From: Tetrahymena thermophila SB210
Lineage: Eukaryota > Ciliophora > Oligohymenophorea > Hymenostomatida > Tetrahymenidae
Direction of reading: 5' to 3'
DNA length: 64,000 nucleotides
NCBI RefSeq assembly: GCF_000189635.1
Contig: NW_002476379.1
Location: 434,001-498,000 of the forward strand
Shown: positions 1 to 19,145 of the stretch, in pieces
Numbering within the stretch: the stretch's first letter is position 1
Layout: the number at the start of each line of letters is the position of its first letter
The notes under the pieces: model-generated
The model's input: only the letters and a program-made list of their open reading frames with translations
Databases searched by the model: none
What the model was told of the DNA's origin: nothing
Position numbers and translations under genes: made by a program

Positions 1-431
1 ATAAATTGAAGATACTTCTATTTATGATGCTAATATTTACTCCTTTATAAAAGAAACCCTTATTTTTATAGCAATTGGTTGTTGAGCCACTAGTAACAGA
101 GAAAGAGTGAAATAAAGTACTAAATAATATATTTAAAGAATAGGTGGAAGTTAAATCAAAAAAAAAATTCATAAAACTAATTAGGTCATAGGTAACCACT
201 TCAAGATAGTAAAATACAGATGAACAGTATCTATATTTATTCGTTCTTTGCAATTTGATTAGATAAGATAGATAAACGATTGCAAAATTTAATTTATAAA
301 TAAATAAATAAAAACGAAAAAACTCAAGATTAATTTTTGATGTTTTAAAAATATATTTTCAGACAATTTATTTATAATATTTATTTAGTTTAAATAATTA
401 AAAAAGAAAAGCAAAGTAATACACTTAGGTC
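1..431. other. Upstream flank of the EF-hand kinase gene
   Basis: AT-rich non-coding sequence before the first gene, with short A/T homopolymer runs and a TAAATAAATAAATA tract near 297-311. It presumably holds the promoter and 5' leader of the kinase gene at 432. I see no RNA gene or conserved coding stretch. Confidence 0.5.
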
Positions 432-2555
432 ATGTCAAGATAAATTGGCAATTACGTCTGGGACAACTCAGGTTTCCTAGGAGAAGGCTCTTATGGTAAA
501 GTATACAAGGGCAAAGATGTGAAAACAGGTGAGCTTGTGGCTGTAAAGTGCATGGATATGTCACAATTCACTGATTAGTTTATGAAGGAGTCACTTGAAA
601 ACGAAATTGGAGTTATGAAAATTTTACATTCTAATAATGTAGTTAGAATGCTTCACTGTGAATAAGACAAAGTAATTTCAATACTTATATTTTTACAAAC
701 AATTAAATAATTAACTCAACATATCATTCCTTAATTACTCTTACTCTCCCTCCTTTTTTGGTATATTCTTTCTTTTGATCTTTGATTACCATTTTAAATG
801 TACATCAAAAAATCTAAAATAATTGAAAAACTATGAAAACTAAACCTTTCAGTTATAATAGAATATTAATTTACTAACTCTTTAAAATTATAAATTCTTA
901 GAAAACTACCTATATCATTTTAGAACTATGTCCAGATGGAGATTTACGTAAATTCATTCACTCAAATGGAGGACACCTTAATGAAACTCTCTCATTGGAG
1001 ATTTTGAATTAGTTGATGTTCGGATTTAAGGAATTAGTTGATCATGGATTTATCCACAGAGACATTAAGCCTGAAAATACTCTCATTAAAAATAAGGTTT
1101 ATAAGGTTGCTGATTTTGGTTTTGCTTGCAAAGCTGACATTTCTGGAAAGAAATTGATCAAAGAATGTGTTGGTACTCCTTTATATATGGCTCCTTAGCT
1201 CCTTGAAAACACTCCCTATACTTCTAAGTCTGATTTATGGAGTATTGGTATGATGTTCTATGAAATGCTCTTTGGTAAAACGTAAGAATTTAAAATTTAT
1301 TAAAGCGATTGAAAATATCTTTTAGATAGATTATATTTTATGAGATTCTTTATATTTTTTAAAAAATAAGCTAGTTAAATAGTTAAATATTTAATTGTAG
1401 ATAGATATTTTAAAAAAATAATTAGATTAATTAGTATGTATTAGAATAAGAAACGCCAAAAAAAAAAATAATAAAGAATTAAAGATATTTTTTTAAGATT
1501 AACAAAATAATTTATTAATAATTAGACCCTGGCCTGCTAGAGATATCAACAGTTACTTACGTAACATGAAGAATAGTCCTTTGAGATTCCCATATGATAA
1601 ACCTATTGGTAAAAATACTAAAGATTTTATCACCAGATGCCTTACCATTAATGAAAAGTCACGTATTAGTTGGGAAGAAGTTTTCTAGCATCCCATATTG
1701 AAGTCAATAAGTGGCAAGCAAGAAGGTCCCGCTTTTAATTTTGATGATAAAGCAAAACAAATTATTAGAAGTATGCAACAAATAGTATAAACAAGAAACT
1801 TGAACACTGAATAAATCTTTTACAAGTTTGATTCTGACCATTAAGGTGGCCTTAACCCTTAAGAGTTCCATTTACTCTTATAGAATATAGACCCTCGTAT
1901 TACCTACTATGAATCTGAGCATCTCTTTTAAATAGTAGATTCCTCAAAAGATGGTAGAATTTCTCTTTAGGAATTCAAAGCTATTTTCAACGAATGGGAC
2001 TTCAGTGACATTAATGATGTTGGTGCCCAAGTTATTGTTGATCTTAAGGAAATTATAAAACACAATAAACTCTCTCTTAAGCAAATTTTCCAAAACTTCG
2101 ATAAGGATAAATAAGGAACCTTAGACTTACAAGAATTCTAAAAGCTCATTCGTGTTGTTGCTCCTCGTTTGAAAGATTATGAAATCGTTCCAGTTTTCAA
2201 GAAATTCGACACAAATGGAGATAATTAGGTATCCTTTGAAGAATTTTATAGAGTCTTGGCCTACGGAATGGAAGAACAAGATTCTAAGTTCAACCCTTCC
2301 TATGAAAAAGGTAAAAAGCTTATTGGTGAGCTCAAGCGTATTATCAAAAACCACAACTTAAACTTAAAGTAAATTTTCAATAATTTCGATAAGAGTAAAG
2401 ATGGAAAACTCAACTTAGAAGAATTTACAAAACTTGTTCTTGTTATTGATAAGAATCTCCCAAGCGCAGAAATTAAGACTATTTTTGATTTATTCAATTC
2501 AGATGGAGATAATGAAATCACATTTGAAGAATTTTCTAACACTTTAGCAAATTGA
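432..2555 (+). CDS. Protein kinase with six C-terminal EF-hands (CDPK-like)
   Basis: Three exons, 432-671, 902-1281 and 1526-2555, join in phase to 549 residues and end at TGA. The N-terminal kinase domain has the glycine loop (LGEGSYGKVY), the ATP-binding lysine (VAVK), HRDIKPEN, DFG and GTPLYMAPQ. The activation-loop style and the segment around PLRFP look closer to ULK/Fused-type kinases than to classical CDPKs. Six EF-hand loops of 12 residues follow, for example DSSKDGRISLQE, DKDKQGTLDLQE and DKSKDGKLNLEE; the last begins with Asn instead of Asp. Ordinary CDPKs carry four. Known: EF-hand kinases transduce Ca2+ signals, which in ciliates concern ciliary beat and exocytosis. Inferred: Ca2+-regulated Ser/Thr kinase. 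The start is the first in-frame ATG before the glycine loop. Confidence 0.88.
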
Positions 2556-4043: not shown

Positions 4044-7000
4044 ATGATTCAAAGTGTCTTGAAATATTTAAATGAAGTATACGGAAAGCAAAAAAAGTAT
4101 GGATTTAAAATCATCGAAAGCGACAATAGCCAGGATACAGATAGATATGTATACGAAATTTTGATATTTATGCAGAGGAAAATTAACTTAAAAATAGAAA
4201 TTGTTCACTTATTTTCAAAATAATAGAGCTTAATGGCTCTTTAAAAAATAAAAGAAATGAAATAATTAATAATTTTATAAATTATAGATAGAATTAGAAA
4301 ACGGCGATTGCGTAAATATCGTTGGGTATAATTAAGGAAATAGATGTCTTAAAAATAATATTCAAAGCTTTTAAGTAAATTTATTTGTTTTAAATAGGCA
4401 GTCATATTTTAATATCTTTGCTAAAAAATCAAAATTTTTTTTAGCACATTTTGCCTACAATTTCTAAAATACTCAAATGGTAATTTAATCTCAATAATTT
4501 AAAAGTGGAAATAATTATTTTTCAGCATCTATGGGTTTTTCACAAGAGTTTAGAACATATTTTTATGCATTACTATATTGATTTGTATTTCACTTGACTA
4601 AGAAAATCTTCCAACAGCATACAATTAGTACTATTTCTACTTTAAATCTTAGCTATTAGATGGATGCATCATTTTGTATTTTCACAAGATGATGCATGGA
4701 TGTCCTTTTTTTTTTTAGTAAAAATTAACTTATAATATTTTTATTTAGGAGTGAAATCGTAGTCTGTCTTTCTATACCTCTTCTATTAGATATTTTTGTT
4801 ATTCTTTTTAAAGAAGCTAACTACTATAGTAAATAAAGAAAATACGATTCGTAAATAAACGACTCTAATGAATGTCAAAAGCTAGTTAGGTTTAAAAATG
4901 CGAAATTTTAAAATTAAGAAAACATTGAAATTTTATAAAATGTTAAATGGGGTAACCTGTAAGTTGGAGATATTATTTTTTTAAAAAGAGACGATTACTG
5001 TCCTGCTGATATACTTATTTTAGATATGTGGGATTAAAAATGCACCATAAAGACATCTTTTCTTGATGACCAATCAAAAGATTCAATTAAATATGCACCT
5101 TTATTGACAACAAGTAAAATAGATAAGATTATTTTATATCTAAAAAACTATTTTTATTAAACAAACTTAACTTATTAACTTACTTTATTGGAAATTGAAT
5201 CTATAAAAAAACGTTTCAAATAAATATTTATGAATTGTCTAAAAATACTTTAAATTTATTTAGACAAATTTAATAAATTTTTTCGTTCTTACCAATAAAA
5301 GAAAAATTAAATAGATTCTTACTTTTTAATAAATATTTTGAAATTAATTGATGCAAATATTAAATTAAAGTAACTATTTATTTTTAACAAAATTTGTAAA
5401 AATTAAAAGCACAAAAATTTTCAAAGTTTCTTAAAATACCTTACAACTGTGTTTTTTTTTTGTCATTTTAATGAAATAAACTTCATACATTATCAAAAAA
5501 AATCAATTTAATTATGGAAAACATAAATAAATTTATTACTTTGTCTTGATTACACACTATATCTTTTAGAAGAATTTTTATCATTAAAATTTCTTTTTGA
5601 TTGTATTAATTTTTCTGATGAGAAAAAAAGCTATTAAGATTATTTTTATATAACGAGAGTGGATGAGTTTATTTCAATTTATTTTGAAGTATAATAATAA
5701 ATATCAATATTTAGAAATTTTTAAAAATAATAGTATCAAAGGGCTCATCGATTAAAGGAAATTTGTTAGAATATAGACGTATCCTAAGTGGTAGAATTGA
5801 TATAAAAAAAACTAATGACATCTATAATTTTAGGGGTTATTTAAGCTTAAAAAAGGATCCTATAAGCGAAAAGTTTGGAAGCAGCAACCTTATACAAAAA
5901 TATTCTTAGATAAAATTTACAGATTGGTTAGTAGGAATAGTTGTTTTGTGTGGTAATGATAGCTATTCTTTTAGAAAATCTGCATTTGATTAAAAAGAAA
6001 AAATAAGAAGAAATAGCTCTTTTTTTAAAAGAAAGTGGGATCTTTAGACTGCAATTTAAATATTAATGATATGTTTTTTTAGCATAATAGTAATAATTTT
6101 AAGAATAAGTATGGTTTGCTTTAAAAGCTTACAGTTCAAGGGATAAATGATCCCAATAGCAATTGATTTTGTCTTCACTTTTCCTCTTTACTATAGTGTT
6201 ATCAATACACTTTGTTTTATATTTTATACAATATTAAGTAGTTATTTATATAAAGTATCAAACACAACTCTTAACTAGAACAAAAGTTTTGACCTGAATT
6301 TCTTAAATTCTTATAGTGAGATGACATTAACAAGCCACGTGATTTTTAATTCTTTTAAAATATAAAATTCTAAGTTAAAAAACATTTCAACAATATGTCT
6401 AAAAGATCGTTATTTTAAAATGAATGAAGAAAATTATAGCAATTAAATTATTAAAAGCAATAATACAGTATTTAGAGCTAAATAATCAAATACCAAAAAC
6501 GATTTCTCTGATGAATTTTCTTTACTTCAGTCTCCTATATCAAGTGTATAGTAAAAATCTAATTCAAACAAGATTAATTTAGGATCAAACTACAGTAATC
6601 CTGAATGTTTACTTTAAAATCAAAGCAAGAGAAATAAAAGTTATACAAATTTCAATCAAACAGCTTCATCTCAAGTAGACGACTCTCCCTAGAATAGTAT
6701 GAATGGTACTTAGCCTTCTAATGGGCATAATGCTCCTCTCTCTACATTTAAAAAGCATTTTAATAAGGATAAATCTCCTCTTTCAAAAATAGTTGAGTTA
6801 GATAGTAAATCTGTAATCCCTTTGGATAATGAAAGCCAAAAAGATAAAGATGAAATTCAAAATGACATAATTAGTAAATATGGATCAAAAAATGAAATAA
6901 AATCATAAAAAAGTTAAAAGAAAAAGTCTATTAATAAAGTTGATTCATTGATAGAATTCGATGATTAAAGTAACTTTTAAACGTTCGCAGAAAATTTTGA

Positions 7001-10000
7001 TAGCTATGATGTACCAGTTAAAACAAAATTGGAATCTCATGCAACAAAAAGAAATGTTTCTATTACTTAATTGAATGTAACAGAAAATAATACAAGTTAT
7101 GACCATGCGATTACTGCTAACTCTAATACAAAAACAATTGATTAAGATGCAACATTCAACAATATATCTCAGAGAGGTTTGCTGAATGATGCAGATTTAT
7201 AACAGAATAAAATACTACATTCAGTATCTCAAAATAATAGTCCTAAAAATAAAAAATATGTGCAATAGCAATCTTTGTAAAACTCAAACACACCATTTTC
7301 TAATTCTAAAAATCTTCATGATTTTAATGAAAATGATGCAATGGCTTTTATGAAAGGAAGTTTTGCACCTATTGGAATTATGTAGAACTACAATTCATTT
7401 GTTAAAGCAAAAAGTGGTAGTTAGTGCGATTCCTCTCTAGTTTAAAAAAATTCATCAATTAAAGAGAATACATAAAAAAACCCTATGCTTTTTAGCTTTG
7501 ACATTGTGAGCTTCTAAGACAAAGAAATTCTTAAGAAATAAGATTAAAAGTCTCCTACAAAAACATTTTATCCTCATCCTTTGCTATCAAATGCTCCTAC
7601 AAATATGTCTTTTTTTGGATACTCTCCTAGATGGAAGAATCCATCTATAATTATGTAAAATGGGATAAGTGGGAATTAAAATAATAAGAATGTTAATATA
7701 AAAGAATTTTAAAATGATATTTTTTAAAGCAACACTGAACAGAGCTAGTAAGTAAATATTGAATTATCTCAAAGTTAACAAACAATTTAAGTTGAAGGAA
7801 GAAATCATGAGTTGAAGAGCTTTTCAAATGAAAACTTATACAGCCATCTTCATCTCAAAAATAATCATAAAGATATTTCGCCTAACAAATTCAAAACAAA
7901 TCAAACTGGCAAGCCTTAATAAAAATCTATCATTGATAATTTTTAAGAAATAGAGATTAAATCAGAAAGTAGCTATGGTAGCAATAATGATAGTGATAAT
8001 GAAGATATCATTTATTAGCAATTTACACATGAAGACAACAGTAAAAACTATCCATATAATGAGCCCTCCTACAACAATTTAATATCCAAACAGTTTAACT
8101 CATCAGCTATTGAACCAACAGAAAAAAGTTTTAGAAAAACTGAAGAAAATTAAGAAATTTATAGAATTAACTCTCCAAATTAAAGAAGAAATAGTGAACA
8201 CAGGACAAGTTTAAAGCAAAGGTATATTTTTATTTATCCAAAATATTTTAAGCAAAAAACAGATTTAAAATCATAAAAAAATAAAATTTAAATATATTTT
8301 ATAATTAAAAATTATCATTTTGATGTTTCATTTTTTTTATTTAATCTTAAAAGAATAAATGGTGTATCTCATGATGATAAGGAATCTTAGGCCAGCAAAT
8401 AAAAAATTTTAAATGGAAATATTGAAAATTTGAATTTACTTTCAAGTGAAATTTAATCTACTAATATTCATACAAAAGTAGATAAAATACTTGATGAATT
8501 ATAGAATTCAAACCAAATTCCTACCCATAATATTTAATCAAGCTAATACTAGGAAGATAATATTAAAAATAAAAATGGATTCTTTTTATCAGAATAAAAA
8601 TTTATTAGATTAAAAAAATAAAAGAGTTTTACAAACAAAGACGCTGCAACAATGAACGAAGATAATTAAAATGAAATATCTAATTTTTAAGAAATATAAG
8701 ATGAATCAAACCCTAAAAATTTAATATTTCATTCAGGGGATTAAACAAATTAATCGAAGATAGCATAAATGAGGGGAGTTACTGTTAATCCATTAATTCA
8801 AAGATTTAAACAAACAAATCATACAGCAATAGATGATATTAATAGTGCAGAATCCCTCCAAAAAAGACTTTCTGTGTCAAGTATGCTTCCTTCTTCAAAC
8901 ACAATACTTTAAAAATAACCAGAATCTTTTCGTAACTTAAATGGAATGAAAAAATCAAATAACCCACAGTTTGAAAATCAATAAGGATTTGCAAAAAGTT
9001 TGGTGGATAAAAACAAAAATGCTAAAGAATTACTTCTAGCAATGACTGTTTGTCATGATACAAAAACTAAAGGAGATAGATTTAAGCAAGGCTAGAGCGT
9101 AAGCCATGTTCATTTCGATGATGATACTTAATTTATTTTAGAATTTGCAAAAAGTCATAGCTTCAGTTTTGAATGTTCTTGCTTTATTTAAGATTAAAAT
9201 TACTATATAATTAAAACAGAGGAAGGTTAAGAGAAATTTTAAGTTTTATAAAGGTTTTAGTCTTTGTCTAATAAGAAATTAATTACAATTGTATAAAATC
9301 AATAAGACTATATTCTTTATATTAAAGACTATGAAAATTTATTTCCAGACTATTTAACAAATTCTGTTTCTAATGAAAAAAAATAAAAACTAGAAAATCT
9401 TATTTCGAAAATTGTCAAGCAGGGAGAAAAAATTATTTTTTACAGCAAAATAATATTAACTGAATAGCAAGTGCTAGATTTAACTAATGCTATCAGATTG
9501 GAAACTTCATAAGAAAAAATATAGCTAATTTATAGATAACTTATCTATTAAAAAGCTGAGGAACCTAGTGAGATTTAAATGCTTGGATTTATAGGTAAGC
9601 AAATTTTTAATCAATCAATCACTTCAACTTAATTAAATTTTAAATAGCTTCAAATTAAATTTTAAAAAATATTTTAACTTAATTTTAAAGAAAGATAATT
9701 TTTTTTATTATTGTGTAGGTCTTTAGGAAGAAAGTGACTTACTTATTCATTAAATGATCAAAGACTTGAGAGGATTTGGATAAAAAATATGGGTTTTAAC
9801 ATCAGATACTTAGTAAAGTACCTTAGAAAGCTGTTATAACTATTCAGTTCTATAAGATAAAGGAATGGATGTAGTTGATTTCTCTTCTTCTAACTTTGAT
9901 GAATTATTTTACAAAACAAGAAATCATCTTTAAAATTTGAAAAAATATCTACAAAAAGAAATGAAATCTCAAAATAATAACAATAATAACATGGCTATTT

Positions 10001-13000
10001 CATAAAGCGTATTTGATAATAACTAAAAAGAAAATATTCCAACTTTATCAAATGTAAAAAATGAAATTTAAACTCCAATAGCTCTAAATAGTTAAAATAA
10101 CCAAAAATTAGTTATTGAAAGAAAAAGTACATTTGCAGATTTTACAAATTCTTCTAAAAAAGGAGGCCTTGTAAGAATGCAAAGTGAAAAGAATATCCCT
10201 AAGAAAACACCTTAAACACCACAAGCAATCGAAGAAAGCACTCCTTTTAACATATCTGCTTCAAATAATGCTTAGTTTATCAACACTCATAATGATAATA
10301 AAGAAATAAATTATTATGTTTTGATTAGTGGTGAGAGTTTAAATACAATTAGAAATAATGCTTATTTATGGGATCACTTTTGTTTAATAGCCTTCTTTGC
10401 TAGTGGCGTAGTTGGGTATGAAATTACTGACGAACAAAAGTGTATTTTAGGTCAAATTATTACGAAACGTTTCCATAAATCCTAATCTAATGTTGTTAAT
10501 ATTATATCAAGCTTAAATGATATTGAGAGTTTAAATTATGAACAAATTAGTGTTTACTTAAGAAGTTAAAGCGACACAAATCCTGAAAATTAAAACTAAA
10601 TTATTAGTCAGCATGCTGATTTAAATACCAAAGATGCTTTATCATTTCTAAATATTTTGACAAAGGAGAGTAGATTATAATCTGAGATAGTCGAAGAAAC
10701 TATCTATTTAGCTATACACAGAAGTTATTTAATGTCTCTAGCTATTATTATATGGAATATATACACTTGTGCATGCAACTACCCTCTTTTTACTCCATAC
10801 TAGACTATAATTTTTCATGGAGTCTAATATTTTATCAGTTTTTTCTTTTATCTAATTCGAAAAAAAAGAAAATTTAATAAAGATAACTAAAACGCAAACC
10901 AAGCAGGTGGATCTCTCTATAATCATTTCATAAATTTGAAAAGTCAATACAGTAGATAGTAATTACCTATACTAAACTTAAAGGTTATAATATCCTCAAT
11001 AATTGATGCTGTTTTCATTTTCATGTATTTTACCATTTTATATAATTTTTAGAATGGTATGGAAATAGATATTGAAACACTAAGATGTGTGATTTAATGG
11101 GGAATAAGTATAGCAGCTTTTTGTAGAGTTTTTGATCTCCATTTCATAAGATTTGATAAATTTTCATTAGTTTATGTTCTTCTTTTTTCAGCTATCTTAG
11201 AAATTCAAACATTAATACACAAAGGAGGAGATGTTGGAGCAGCTCTTTTTATGCATACATTTAAAAGCGGATATATTCTCAATTTTCTCTTGTTTTTATT
11301 CTTTTGTATCATAAAAAATGTAATTGAAAGCAATTTTATTAGGACAGCTCCTCGTGCTATCGTAGGTTTCAGTAAATACTTTTTAAATTAGCAAAAACAA
11401 TAAAAGAAATAGAAGAAAAGGAATAGTTTAATTGAATTAAAATCCGTGATAACTTCAAATAAAACTAGCAAAAAGCAACTATCAGATAACGCAGATTAAG
11501 ATAATAAAAATCAAGAATAAACGATCAACAAATAAGGACAAATTAGTCCAGAATAAAAAGATAACAAGACTCTATATATAGGAAATACTAATATCATTAA
11601 TATTCAAAAAAGTGAGTTTACAAGTATGAATTCTCTTTCTACACCTCCTGCTTTTTCATTAAGCAATTTAAAAAGCTTAAACATAAAAATTAACCCAGCA
11701 CAAGTTATAAGAAGCATATTCAAGGATAAAGAGATGGATATAATTCTATCTTAGATGCTTATGTAAGAAGAAATAAACATTACATCTACCCAAATGCAAA
11801 AATTTACACTAAGATTCTAATTCAGAGAAATAGAAAGGCTATTCATAAAAGGTTGGGAACTGTTAATACCTAACTCTAATCGTATATTTTATGTAATTAA
11901 TTTCGTTGCTTTTGATATTGCTTATGATGTTCTAGTTCTCAGCAAAGTCACAAATGAATTCTCTTCTGCAGATGGAGGTTACATTATTACATATGCGATT
12001 ACAGCTTCTACTATTTTTATCTTTACAGCTCTCTCTTTGACTAAATATTATCAGAAAAAAAATATTCTCATCTTCTCATCAACAGTAAATTTTTATTTAT
12101 TTTCTTCATCCTAATCATTTAATAAAATAATCTTTGGATAATTCTCAATCAATCAATAAACAAATTGAATTAGAGTTTAATTGGTTAAATATTTATTTTT
12201 TGAAAATAATATATTAGTTAGTCATAGTCAGATCAATAAAGTTTATTTTATTAGGTATCTTTAAGCAAATTATTATATACCCTACTGAATTAATCATGCA
12301 TACTGCAGTTGCATCTTCTTGCTTAAGATTTTCACACCACAATGTTCTAATTTAAGGACTAATTCTATTTTTTTCATTCATTGTTTTGTAAAATTTATAA
12401 TTAAATTTAATTATATGATAACCATGATATAATTTTTAATTAATTAGGACTGAGACTAATATCAAGAAGTGGAATCTTTAAAGATTTTTAGATGAAATAG
12501 GATATGTATATGAAGGAAGTTAGGGATAATAAGACTCTATATACATAGTTAGAATATGCTTCTATATTTCCTTTTTTATAATACTTGCTTAATTTGTAGC
12601 TACAAAATATAATGTATTTATTATTTAATTTGATTTTTTCTCTTTGTGTCTTAATTTTTATTTTTAATATTTAATTTTTAGATGATTTTTACAATAAGAA
12701 CAAACTATTTATCAGAGCATAACTTATTTAAGGCAACGCTTAAAGTTAAGGATATACTTTCTATACTTCTTCCTAAATTTATTCGTGAAAAAATAGAAAC
12801 CATGAAGCAAGGACAATATAGAGTTGCTGAAAAATAGGATGAAGTTATAATAGTATTCTGCGACATATGCAATTTCGATGATATAATTTTTAACGAAAAA
12901 ATAAATACAGTTAAAATCCTTGATAAGCTTTATCGTTAATTCGATTTGGCTTGCTAATAAAATGGTCTTTAAAAGATAGAAACAGTAAAAAAAATATTAA

Positions 13001-15872
13001 TAAATATTCAGTTCATTTAATTTTATGTATAAAATAGGTGGGAAAAACGTATTTAGCAGCTGCAGGGATAAGCGATGTAGAAAAATTATTAAAGGCTGAA
13101 GGTAGACTTCAAGATGTATCACCAGCAAAAAGAGCTTTATAATTTGCTTTTGATCTGTAAAGGATTGTGAAGAGTAAGTAATTGTACCTAGCTTCTAATA
13201 AAAAGATAATAATTAAAGTTGGAATTCATCTAGGTCCTGCCATCTCAGGTGTTATAGGATATCATAAGCCATAGTTTTCTTTAATAGGTGATACAGTTAA
13301 CACGACAAGTAGAGTTTGCTCTACAGGTCTTTCAGATCATATCATTATTTCTAAAGAAGTTTATGATAAAGTCTATTAATTAAGCTAGTATAAATTTCAA
13401 CAAAGAGATGTTGAAGCAAAAGGTAAAGGAATTATGGTCACATTTTAAGTATTTGACAAAAGACACATAAGGAACAATGCGGCGAAAAAGCAAACCTTAA
13501 GTATATTTTTGTTTTTCTTATACTTACAAAGCTAAACATTATTTTTAATTTTAATAGATTTCTTGGATGATACGGCCATAATAAATAATTAAAATACAAA
13601 TCCTACACTAACTTCAAACTTATCATCTGTATTTTAAATAGGATCAGGTATTCATAATTTCCTATCTAGCCATAACTAGATCCACTAGCTAACCCTAGAA
13701 AACAGTAGTGAAAAAAATACATAAGAGCAAAGCAATTAAATTAAAAAAAATAATAGCAATAAATTCATTCCATTGAAGTCAATTCCAGAAAGCCCAAATA
13801 ATTATTCGAATGCATCTTAAATATAAATTAAAGATTAAAAAATGAGTTTGGTTAATGGCGAGGATACTAATTGCTCTATAAAATAAATCTTAGTATAGCC
13901 TCTTTCAGATTAGTTAATATAAAAATCAACACCTTCAAATATAAATTTAAGAATCAAAAATACTTCTTTTGGAGGTGCTTTGGAAGATTTAAATTAAAAG
14001 CAAAAAGCTGGTGGCTCAAATTAAGAAATAGGTTAAAGAAGAAGAATGCTTAAAAAATCTAGCTCAATGACCGTAGTAAATCTAAAGCCTCGCTTCAAAA
14101 ATGACTCACAATAAAGTAATTAAAATAAAATTGTTGGAAGCAGAGAGGAAAATATAGATGAGTAGTCTTCACCCCTTGCTCCAAGTAGAAACGAATTCAT
14201 AAGGCAAATTGAAAAAGACCTACTGTAAAGAATTGAATTAGAGCCAGTGTAAATATAGATGAAGGAGTTAACCTTGCCCTTAGAAAAAATAAAAATGCAT
14301 ATTAATCACTAAGATCATGGTGGAGATAAAAGTCTAGCCAGCTCAAGAGATGAAGTAGGAAGTTCACATTCTTCACACTTAAGGTTAGGAATATGCTCCA
14401 CAAACAGTAAGTCCACAGCTGAATAAAAGTAACTTCATACAGAATTCCTCAAACAAATAATGAAATAGTAAATACCAACCATAATAGCATGGATGTGTAT
14501 TATATCTCTATACTATTTAATTAAGGCAGGTAGTGTAATTTATTTTATCAATAACAAAGGACAACTACAATTATCTCAAGAGATTTAGCTTAATCTCACT
14601 ATATATTTAGTATTAATGCTCCTTTTGTATTTACCTCTTGCCTGTGCTTTTAGAAAGCTTCATAATTATCTATCTTGGAAGAATATGCGTATTTTCATCT
14701 ACACATTTTACTTTTTATCTTTAGCTTTTTAGCTAATTCATAATCTGTTTCTTGATGACTATCTAAATGAAGTAACAAAATACAATCTTGATATGATAAG
14801 CAATTCGTATAGAGCTACTGTCAATTCAGTAACGGCTGTTATCTTACCAAGCACATTAATATATGCTATGGAGCTATAGTTTATCTTTATCTTTTTCACA
14901 ACATTTAAATCATTATACTTTATGGAAAAAGTTGGAGCTATGATTGCATAAGTGGTTACTTGCTTTCTTTATATTACTTTTAAAAATAGATTTGATGTTC
15001 TAATCATCTTTTTCGTTGTTTTGGTTGGTATTATACACCTAAGAATTTAGTACAATCATATGTAAAACGAGGTACGCAATTTCAATAACCTAAAAACTCT
15101 TGAATCTAAAAAAGATGAATTAGATTCGCTTCTCAAAAATCTGCTGCCAGCTCATATTTTAGACACATTTTTAAATTCTATGAAAAAAGAAATTCCTTTA
15201 ATTTGTGAAGAGCTTCATGATGTTACTTTGCTGTTTGCAGATATAGCAGGATTTACAAAATATTCAAGTACAACAGATCCAATTGTTGTTGTGAATATGC
15301 TACGTAGGCTTTTTACAGATTTTGATGATCATTGCTTAAATTAAAATGTCTATAAGCTTTATACAATCGGTGATTGTTATGTTTGCTTTGGATTAACAAA
15401 CAAAAATGAAAGAAATCCTGCTTAAGAAGCACATAATGTAGTTAGATTTGCTTTTGACATGATAAGAATAATAGAAAATGTTCGTTAATATACAGATTGT
15501 AATTTACAAATGAGAATAGGAGTCCACACAGTAATCTATCTACTTTTTTTAATTATTATTTTAAATTAAAATTATTTACTAAATAAATAGGGAAAATTAT
15601 ATGGAGGAATAGTTGGAACTGAGATTGTGAGATATGATATATATGGCTAAGATGTAATAATAGCAAATAAAATGGAGTCAAATGGTGAAAGTGGCCACGT
15701 TATGGTTAGTGAAACAACAAAAAAGCTACTTGAAGATAATTTTCCTAATGAATTCCTATTTGATTTTAAAGAGCATGTCCATATCAAATAAACAAATAAA
15801 GATATTGATGGCTTTTTAATAAGATTTAATTAAAACACTTCAGTTTACTATGATAACTCTCCTGAAAACTGA
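4044..15872 (+). CDS. Guanylyl cyclase fused to a P4-ATPase-like module
   Basis: Fourteen exons keep phase to about 3,587 residues: 4044-4148, 4288-4374, 4445-4479, 4526-4675, 4749-5688, 5715-8221, 8354-9594, 9719-12084, 12242-12387, 12448-12613, 12682-12984, 13038-13500, 13558-15530, 15591-15872. The N-terminal half follows P4-ATPase order: TM1-2, actuator (GDIIFLKRDDYCPAD), TM3-4, an N domain at about 9010-9590, a P domain (KIWVLTSDT) and TM5-10. The phosphorylation motif DKTGTLT is replaced by YSEMTLT. A Ser/Asn/Lys-rich insert of about 840 residues lies at 6350-9000. Then come membrane set 1, cyclase C1 (FCDICNF; QKIET; QFSLIGDT), a polar linker, membrane set 2 and cyclase C2 (FADIAGFT; IGDCYVC). 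This architecture is known for ciliate and apicomplexan membrane guanylyl cyclases, which make cGMP from GTP. Exons 1-3 and the 26-nt intron at 5689-5714 are the least certain parts. Confidence 0.93.
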
Positions 15873-17633: not shown

Positions 17634-19145
17634 TCATAGTTTACTTTTTATAAATTTAAAGGGTCTATAAACAAAAATAACCAATAACCCAATTCCTATT
17701 GCAAAATTAATATGAAATAAAAATTTGAATATGCTAAATGGGCCTTTGAAAAATGAAAAATCTTTATTATTATCTTCTTCTTATTTTGTTTGCTTTTTAG
17801 ATTAGCTTATGTCATTTGTTTTTTGATGATGTTTAGTACCTTCTTTTTTTTATTGACCAACAGGATTTATTTTAGGATTTCTATTAATTCCAAATATTTT
17901 ATCTAATTATTGATCTGTTTTTAACAATTTTTTATCTTTATCTTCTTGTACTTCATTTTGGTATTATTAAAACTATTCTAGTTCTAAATTATCATCTTAT
18001 TATTAATATTATTGTATTTATTATTCTACTTGAACTACTTCTTCTATAGGCCAGTTGAATTTTTCTATACTCTATTCAAGTAATTATTTTTCAAATAAAC
18101 AATTGTAATGGCCTTTTGTAAATAACACCGAAACAACATTAGATACTTTGTTTTCATCAAATTTATATTCGAATTAATCTGTAAAAATGCCTTCATGATT
18201 TCTATAAATATTTTTAACTTTCAAATCTACTTAGAAAGCTTTAGCTGCTATTGATATTATAACATCTTCAGCTTCTTACCCGTACTATAAAAGATATTTA
18301 GGTGAATTTGCTTTAGATTCTTCAGTAATGAAATATTAATAACTTGGATCTTTTAAAAGAAAATTAAATTTATTTAATATGATGTTCCTACATATAACCA
18401 CTGTAGATACATCTACAAAAGGATGTTAATTATATTCTTCAAAAAGTTTTTTTAGATCATACTTCTATTAAAGTCTTAAAACTCTATGACAATCAATGAA
18501 TTTGCTCATCCAGAAATGCAAAAAGTGCAATTTAAATTCAGGAGTTAAATCAATCTAGTTTTCATTAAATTTTTCTAGTTTATATTATACTTATTTTAAT
18601 TTGAAAACTTTTTAAAAAATTTTGAGTGCATCTTCAATATTTTGCTAAATAATAACCATAAACATGATGTTTATCATGAATGACCTATAAAAACAATTTC
18701 CATCACCTCTAATTTATATATGATAAGGGAAGTTTTCATCAGATTTATGATATGCGTCCTTAAGTTATTAATTGTTGATGTTTGAGTCAGCGTATTAGCT
18801 AAGTTTTCCAAATGATTGTAAGGAGCTATGCTTAAAATCAAAATGTTTCATATTAATTTCTAGTTTATGTTAATCTAAATCTTTGTTAGTATGTTCTATA
18901 AAATCTAAAATAGGAGAAATTTATTCATTGAATATTTCTAGTGCAATTTTTGAATTTAACTCTACCTTGCTTAATTTTATAGTTATGTTGTTATTTATTT
19001 TATTTTAGTTATCGCTTGAGATAGCTTGGGTCTCTTCGGGTTTCAGAATTTAATTTTAGCTAGCTTCTTCAGCTTTATCTTAAATTGTCTAATCAGTCAA
19101 GTCAGTATTAGTTTATAATTAATGAGTTTAACCAATATCGCTCAT
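17634..19145 (-). CDS. Otubain-like deubiquitinase (peptidase C65) with C-terminal TM
   Basis: A single-exon frame of 503 residues on the minus strand, from ATG at 19145 to TGA at 17636-17634. Residues 147-153 read GDGNCFY, the otubain catalytic Asp/Cys loop, with the nucleophile at Cys151. The catalytic His is at about residue 346 in KGHYNCLF, comparable with PGHYDILY of OTUB1. Known: otubains cleave ubiquitin chains. Unusual here: after a Gln/Lys-rich stretch the last 35 residues hold one hydrophobic segment (FAIGIGLLVIFVY) followed by a short basic tail, as in a tail-anchored protein. Typical otubains are soluble. Inferred: an active deubiquitinase tethered with its catalytic domain in the cytosol, perhaps on ER or mitochondria. 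The N-terminal 130 residues are polar and not recognised. Confidence 0.82.

What the first reader, a model, noticed from the sequence alone, without database searches (positions are those of the whole stretch)
4044..15872. Guanylyl cyclase whose ATPase half has lost the phosphorylated Asp
The P4-ATPase-like half keeps the order of membrane segments, actuator, N and P domains, but DKTGTLT reads YSEMTLT (codons at 6312-6332), the hinge TGDK reads TSDT (about 9793-9811) and the GDGxND loop reads like SSLNDIE (about 10505-10527). All three catalytic sites are changed, so this half is probably a pseudo-pump that now regulates or localises the cyclase. The fusion itself is known in ciliates and apicomplexans; the pattern of lost motifs here is seen directly.
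Basis: partly seen in the sequence, partly recalled or inferred. Interest (0 to 1): 0.72.

Follow-up and report, generated by a model that had tools for sequence, protein, structure and literature searches.

The report
Guanylyl cyclase with dead flippase half
A ciliate gene makes a giant enzyme that should still produce the messenger cGMP, but its attached lipid-pump half has lost the residues needed for pumping, as six of its thirteen sister genes have lost at least the key one, so here the pump part is probably a sensor or anchor and not a pump.

Summary
The gene at 4044-15872 is real: a 3,391-residue model (ciliate code, 14 exons, no internal stop) with a P4-ATPase-like N half and two cyclase domains. 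Aligned with paralogues, the DKTGT site is NSFKI at 6348-6362 (Asp to Asn), not YSEMTLT at 6312-6332. TGDK=TSDT and GDGxND=ISSLND hold. Three further changes were missed: actuator DGET=DDQS, TM4 PISL=PLYY (by eye), nucleotide-site KGAD=KDYE. Cyclase active-site residues are kept. The genome holds 14 such fusions. The Asp is kept in 7 of 14 and replaced by N, S, H or G in 7. The DGET glutamate is absent in the 12 of 14 that could be read, even in members with perfect DKTGT. Best reading: a pseudo-flippase that anchors or gates the cyclase, as may hold for the degenerate P. falciparum GC-beta; the mechanism is inferred. The fusion and a degenerate ATPase half are already known in Plasmodium. The graded decay across a ciliate family was not found in the papers searched.

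The parts
4044..15872 (+). GC-ATPase fusion gene, 14-exon model, 3,391 aa (N-terminal start and small first exons unverified)
   Evidence: own Viterbi gene finder plus hand splicing; all 13 introns GT..AG, one terminal TGA
4288..4675 (+). degenerate P4 N-terminal motif and TM1 (exons 4288-4374, 4445-4479, 4526-4675)
   Evidence: weak by-eye likeness of IELENGDCVNIV to IELLNGETVS of paralogue C309_480; hydropathy peak aa 81-99
4749..5113 (+). TM2 and first half of the actuator domain
   Evidence: TIGR01652 E 2.2e-22 on a piece with two loops left out, best stretch 127-371; ATP8A1 chain 6k7g_A E 9.8e-15
5065..5076 (+). DGET of the actuator reads DDQS (Glu to Gln)
   Evidence: alignment to ATP8A1 and to 11 paralogues; place
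5734..6300 (+). rest of actuator domain, TM3, TM4
6183..6194 (+). TM4 PISL position reads PLYY
   Evidence: by-eye alignment of TM4 segments of paralogues (segments)
6312..6332 (+).
6348..6362 (+). true DKTGT position: NSFKI (Asp to Asn)
6400..9020 (+). long Q/N/S-rich insertion between the P-site strand and the N domain (intron 8222-8353 within)
   Evidence: translation
9024..9594 (+). degenerate nucleotide-binding (N) domain; KGAD reads KDYE at 9324-9335
   Evidence: ATP8A1 alignment domain 2, i-E 0.0016; alignment A1; place
9799..9810 (+). TGDK reads TSDT
   Evidence: aligned to WILTGDKQETA of ATP8A1
10504..10521 (+). GDGxND reads ISSLND
   Evidence: ungapped by-eye match to paralogue C309_480 AIGDGLNDL
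12826..13451 (+). first cyclase domain (resembles mammalian C2); E and S at the purine-selectivity positions, N and R transition-state residues kept
   Evidence: PF00211 5.9e-37; best match adenylyl cyclase C2 part; place
15207..15818 (+). second cyclase domain (resembles mammalian C1); both metal Asp kept (FADIAGF 15234-15254, IGDCY 15366-15380)
   Evidence: PF00211 8.8e-49; best match adenylyl cyclase C1 part; place

Best explanation
The gene encodes an alveolate-type guanylyl cyclase whose P4-ATPase half is a pseudo-flippase. It cannot form the aspartyl phosphate (Asp to Asn, Mg and ATP motifs changed), could not be dephosphorylated in the usual way (DGET Glu to Gln), and lacks the PISL lipid-path motif, so it does not pump (follows from the altered motifs). 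The cyclase half keeps its catalytic residues and should make cGMP (residues shown, activity inferred). The ATPase half most likely survives as a membrane module that binds a CDC50 subunit, places the cyclase in its membrane, and passes a lipid, ligand or conformational signal to the C1/C2 pair without ATP hydrolysis (inferred). In this genome it is the far end of a family of 14 fusions in various stages of losing the pump cycle.
For: Motifs. Family-wide pattern: 14 loci with at least two cyclase-domain places each and an ATPase-like region; Asp kept in 7 of 14 (DKTGTLT x3, DKTGTIT x2, DKTQTLT, DKIGVPF), lost in 7 of 14 (SKSGTLT, SQTGTIT, SLSGAFL, NTANTLT, NSFKIQN, HKNTSIS, GKTNVIS); DGET Glu absent in 12 of 12 readable, of 14; a GDGxND codon match in 4 of 14. 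Control: LDGET stands in 11 held P4 loci and KGAD in 11 distinct sequences of the same genome (found by searching for the motif, so loci lacking it would not be seen). Cyclase residues. Maintained reading frame: 2,279 codons in the first 8 exons, two exons of 829 and 788 codons, without TGA. CCCCAA repeats at both ends of contig C4, so the assembly looks macronuclear, the expressed genome. CDC50 homologues on 6 contigs. [quoted passage not shown] PMC9426505 passages say P. yoelii GC-beta binds CDC50A and is degraded without it.
Against: In P. falciparum GC-alpha the conserved Asp could not be replaced by Asn (PMC7858053 section 10), so an active ATPase half can be required in this architecture. 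GDGxND is degenerated in PfGC-alpha too (PMC6592433 section 7), so that loss alone does not mean an inactive half. No expression, ortholog or selection data were available. The fold of the N half rests on sequence: a single-sequence model of the N domain was too poor to use (pLDDT 47), and Pfam PF16209 and PF16212 do not match this gene. A crude hydropathy scan gave 19 peaks, some overlapping, with 4 between residues 1800 and 2030 where six helices (TM5-TM10) are expected, so the second half of the membrane part is not resolved.
Confidence: 0.6

Rival explanations
1. The ATPase half is simply decaying: relaxed constraint after the fusion, no present role beyond being tolerated.
For: Members differ in which motifs are lost; long end branches (median 1.11 changes per column); TM5-TM10 are poorly resolved by hydropathy.
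Against: The modelled frame is open over 2,279 codons with GT..AG introns; actuator and TM3 segments of window and C309_322 are still similar although both lost the Asp (53% over 51 aa, 33% over the next block); each of the 14 cyclase loci outside the two soluble-type ones (C36, C171) still carries the half.
Confidence: 0.17
2. Residual or altered chemistry: the half still binds nucleotide or is phosphorylated elsewhere, or works as a heteromer with an Asp-bearing paralogue.
For: Seven paralogues keep the Asp and could pair; residues needed for activity may migrate in some pseudoenzymes (PMC10211241, start of abstract in the listing).
Against: The N-domain KGAD and P-domain motifs are changed too; P-type ATPases are not known to complement in trans (recalled).
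Confidence: 0.15
3. Artefact: wrong exon choice or misassembly hides a normal DKTGT.
For: The gene model is computed, with no cDNA.
Against: No DKTG in any of six frames of the window; both flanks of the site align without need of another exon; the six altered motifs lie in four different exons.
Confidence: 0.04

Closest known systems
Ciliate and apicomplexan P4-ATPase/guanylyl cyclase fusions (Paramecium, Tetrahymena PAC1/PAC2, Toxoplasma TgATPaseP-GC, Plasmodium GC-alpha)
   Same: Same order: P4-ATPase-like half, then two cyclase domains with inverted C1/C2 residues (PMC6592433 section 7 read, sections 6 and 8 in passages)
   Different: TgGC and PfGC-alpha keep DKTGT and DGET or NGET (PMC6592433 section 7); the window gene keeps neither. 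Sequences themselves were not compared here
P. falciparum GC-beta
   Same: Described as having a degenerated ATPase domain with most signature residues not identified (PMC6592433 section 7); its P. yoelii counterpart binds CDC50A (PMC9426505, passages)
   Different: An apicomplexan case; its sequence was not compared here
Canonical P4-ATPases such as human ATP8A1
   Same: Actuator, N-domain and hinge segments align; TIGR01652 E 2.2e-22
   Different: Each of the six motifs looked at is altered; score 78.7 is below the TIGR01652 cut-off of 431

Membership tests
Alveolate GC/P4-ATPase fusion family | P4-ATPase-like half upstream of two class III cyclase domains in one gene | tested here: met
   that it is one transcript rests on the gene model
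Alveolate GC/P4-ATPase fusion family | inverted cyclase residues with GTP-type purine positions | tested here: met
   first domain matches mammalian C2, second C1; K to E and D to S at the purine positions (E with Ala or Cys is the described GTP pair, PMC6592433 section 8 passages, so S is a variant)
Active P4-ATPase | DKTGT phosphorylated Asp | tested here: not met
   NSFKI
Active P4-ATPase | DGET in the actuator | tested here: not met
   DDQS
Active P4-ATPase | TGDK and GDGxND | tested here: not met
   TSDT; ISSLND (by eye)
Active P4-ATPase | KGAD nucleotide site | tested here: not met
   KDYE
Active P4-ATPase | CDC50 partner | not testable with these tools
   CDC50 homologues exist in the genome; binding unknown
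Active guanylyl cyclase | metal Asp pair, transition-state Asn and Arg | tested here: met

The most novel reading that the evidence does not exclude
No member of this ciliate family completes a pump cycle: all 14 fusions use the flippase fold as a regulator, some (those with DKTGT and GDGxND but no DGET Glu, as C309_480) as a phospho-switch that autophosphorylates and stays phosphorylated to set cyclase activity, others (such as the window gene) as phosphate-free locked forms of the same switch.
Probability: 0.2. Interest if true: 0.85.

Novelty: new variant of a known kind. Interest (0 to 1): 0.5.

Why it matters
Whether the ATPase half of alveolate guanylyl cyclases pumps lipid, or only senses and places the enzyme, is an open question. 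One ciliate genome offers 14 natural versions, from perfect DKTGT to wholly degenerate, so activity, localisation and cGMP output could be compared member by member in what is probably a free-living laboratory-type organism.

Tried and rejected
TM4 motif first read by me as PIAI (note), then as PLYY after comparing paralogues by eye. First gene-finder settings over-split introns and were tightened. A TGA count by frame ignored exon phase and is not used. The DGET script was meant to add P4 controls but its pattern found none; the controls come. C36 and C171 cyclases are not fusions in the stretches fetched. The tree cannot fix the number of Asp losses: 4 changes on the best tree, 3-4 in bootstraps, but strongly supported branches force only 1. 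The N-domain model was too poor for a fold search, so none was run. Linder et al. 1999 is not held, so the state of the motifs in Paramecium and T. pyriformis was not checked; direct column comparison with Toxoplasma and Plasmodium sequences was not done, only what PMC6592433 and PMC7858053 say.
Full report
What the window is. The window is contig C158:434001-498000 of a 101.0 Mb, 445-contig genome with about 23% G+C. With the standard code no frame of 150 codons is open; with TAA and TAG read as Gln many are. Contig C4 carries CCCCAA repeats at both ends. This fits a Tetrahymena-like macronuclear genome; the species is inferred, not shown.

The gene. A hand-refined gene model runs from 4044 to 15872 in 14 exons, 3,391 residues, all 13 introns GT..AG, a single TGA at the end. 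The start codon and the small first exons are not verified. The ATPase half, given as one piece with two loops left out, matches TIGR01652 (phospholipid-translocating P-type ATPase) at E 2.2e-22, below that model's cut-off, and ATP8A1 in the PDB at E 9.8e-15. Pfam sees only a weak E1-E2_ATPase match there (E 0.0034, below cut-off), and the P4-specific models PF16212 and PF16209 list 47 and 23 places in the genome but none in this gene. Both cyclase domains are strong (5.9e-37 and 8.8e-49).

The catalytic sites. Alignment of 14 GC fusions and 6 P4-ATPases of the same genome shows that the strand before the site reads, for example, ISLTNHVFF-DKTGTIT in C39, MCLTTHLVF-NTANTLT in C309_322, and MTLTSHVIF-NSFKIQN in the window. 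A profile of the other 19 sequences ranks NSFKIQN first of 3,351 positions and YSEMTLT 201st. So the Asp is replaced by Asn, codon at 6348. The hinge reads TSDT and is aligned to TGDK of ATP8A1. GDGxND reads ISSLND, from an ungapped by-eye match to paralogue C309_480; its last two residues are kept. The actuator DGET reads DDQS. The KGAD of the N domain reads KDYE. The TM4 proline motif reads PLYY where active P4s have PISL (by eye on segments; PISL from PMC7858053 section 10). No DKTG, GDGxND, TGD[KN] or KGA[DS] stands in any frame of the window. Asp to Asn is a change used to stop P4 pumps (PMC7858053 section 10); that Glu to Gln in DGET does the same is recalled.

The cyclase half. The first cyclase domain matches mammalian adenylyl cyclase C2, the second C1, the inverted order described for TgGC (PMC6592433 section 8, passages). 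Both metal Asp are in the second domain, Asn and Arg of the transition state in the first, and the purine positions carry E and S in place of the adenylyl cyclase K and D. A working guanylyl cyclase is the plain prediction; the whole Paramecium enzyme was active in insect cells (PMC5746546, passages).

The family. Fourteen loci carry at least two cyclase-domain places and an ATPase-like region. Asp state, 14 of 14 read: DKTGTLT in C99, C262, C309_480; DKTGTIT in C39, C122; DKTQTLT in C422; DKIGVPF in C269; SKSGTLT in C4; SQTGTIT in C261; SLSGAFL in C187; NTANTLT in C309_322; NSFKIQN in the window; HKNTSIS in C309_105; GKTNVIS in C309_99. An exact search for DKTGTLT codons gives 57 places in the genome, of which the three named lie in fusions. 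DGET, 12 of 14 readable (C262 and C122 not fetched): DDQS, DDKS, NGKT, DGVL, KGIC, SESN, DGVS, DGKE, EGLT, NGDT, NGNT, DGKS; in this alignment the Glu column never holds E, and only NGDT has an acid there; SESN, EGLT and DGKE have a Glu one or two columns off, so their register is less sure. A GDGxND codon match is found in 4 of 14 (C122, C262, C309_480, C422); an intron inside the motif would be missed. C99 and C39 thus have DKTGT without a GDGxND match. In C269 the loop is GDGYKD and the hinge SYEN. P4 loci of the genome show LDGET in 11 cases and KGAD in 11 distinct sequences; these were found by looking for the motif, so this shows presence, not frequency.

Descent. On a tree of 14 rows and 257 columns with the site's seven residues left out, the window gene pairs with C309_322 (97/96), the other Asp-to-Asn member. 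Asp state needs 4 changes on the best tree (3-4 in bootstraps), but starred branches alone force 1, so repeated loss is likely and not proven.

What it does. The half cannot run the usual pump cycle. The simplest reading that keeps the open frame is a pseudo-flippase that anchors, chaperones or gates the cyclase, perhaps through CDC50, of which the genome has homologues on 6 contigs. Hydropathy shows TM1-TM4 clearly but only 4 peaks, two of them overlapping, between residues 1800 and 2030, so TM5-TM10 are not confirmed. The precedent is Plasmodium GC-beta: degenerate ATPase half in P. falciparum (PMC6592433 section 7), CDC50A-bound and unstable without it in P. yoelii (PMC9426505, passages). 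Against a general scaffold view, PfGC-alpha did not tolerate D756N (PMC7858053 section 10), although its own GDGxND is degenerated (PMC6592433 section 7). Both may be true of different members, and this genome may hold both sorts.

Known or new. The fusion is known since Linder et al. 1999 (not held; known here from passages and reference lists of other papers). A survey of fused genes in T. thermophila lists two such genes, PAC1 and PAC2 (PMC3143110, passages). Searches for guanylate cyclase with P4-ATPase and Toxoplasma or ciliate, guanylyl cyclase with Tetrahymena and Paramecium, DKTG with alveolate, Tetrahymena guanylyl cyclase gene family, and pseudo P-type ATPase showed no report of the loss pattern in ciliates; the library is partial and most papers were seen only as listings. 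The degenerate ATPase half as such is known from PfGC-beta, so this is a variant of a known kind.

Noticed in passing
window 389-2555 (+): A predicted gene for a protein kinase with C-terminal EF-hands (calcium-dependent kinase type) lies just upstream of the cyclase.
   Followed up: partly
window 17637-19145 (-): Otubain-like peptidase C65 frame downstream.
   Followed up: no
G000 contig C309 (L062-L065, L073, L080): Four of the 14 fusions lie on one contig; the predicted starts of two of them (near 101.7 kb and 103.4 kb) stand head to head.
   Followed up: partly
L068-L071: Two more genes (C36, C171) carry, by eye, paired cyclase domains of soluble adenylyl cyclase type and a P-loop-like stretch, without a P4 half in the fetched stretch.
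   Followed up: no
window 6400-9020 (+): A Q/N/S-rich insertion of some 800 residues sits between the P-site strand and the N domain; C422 and C309_105 have long ones at the same place.
   Followed up: no
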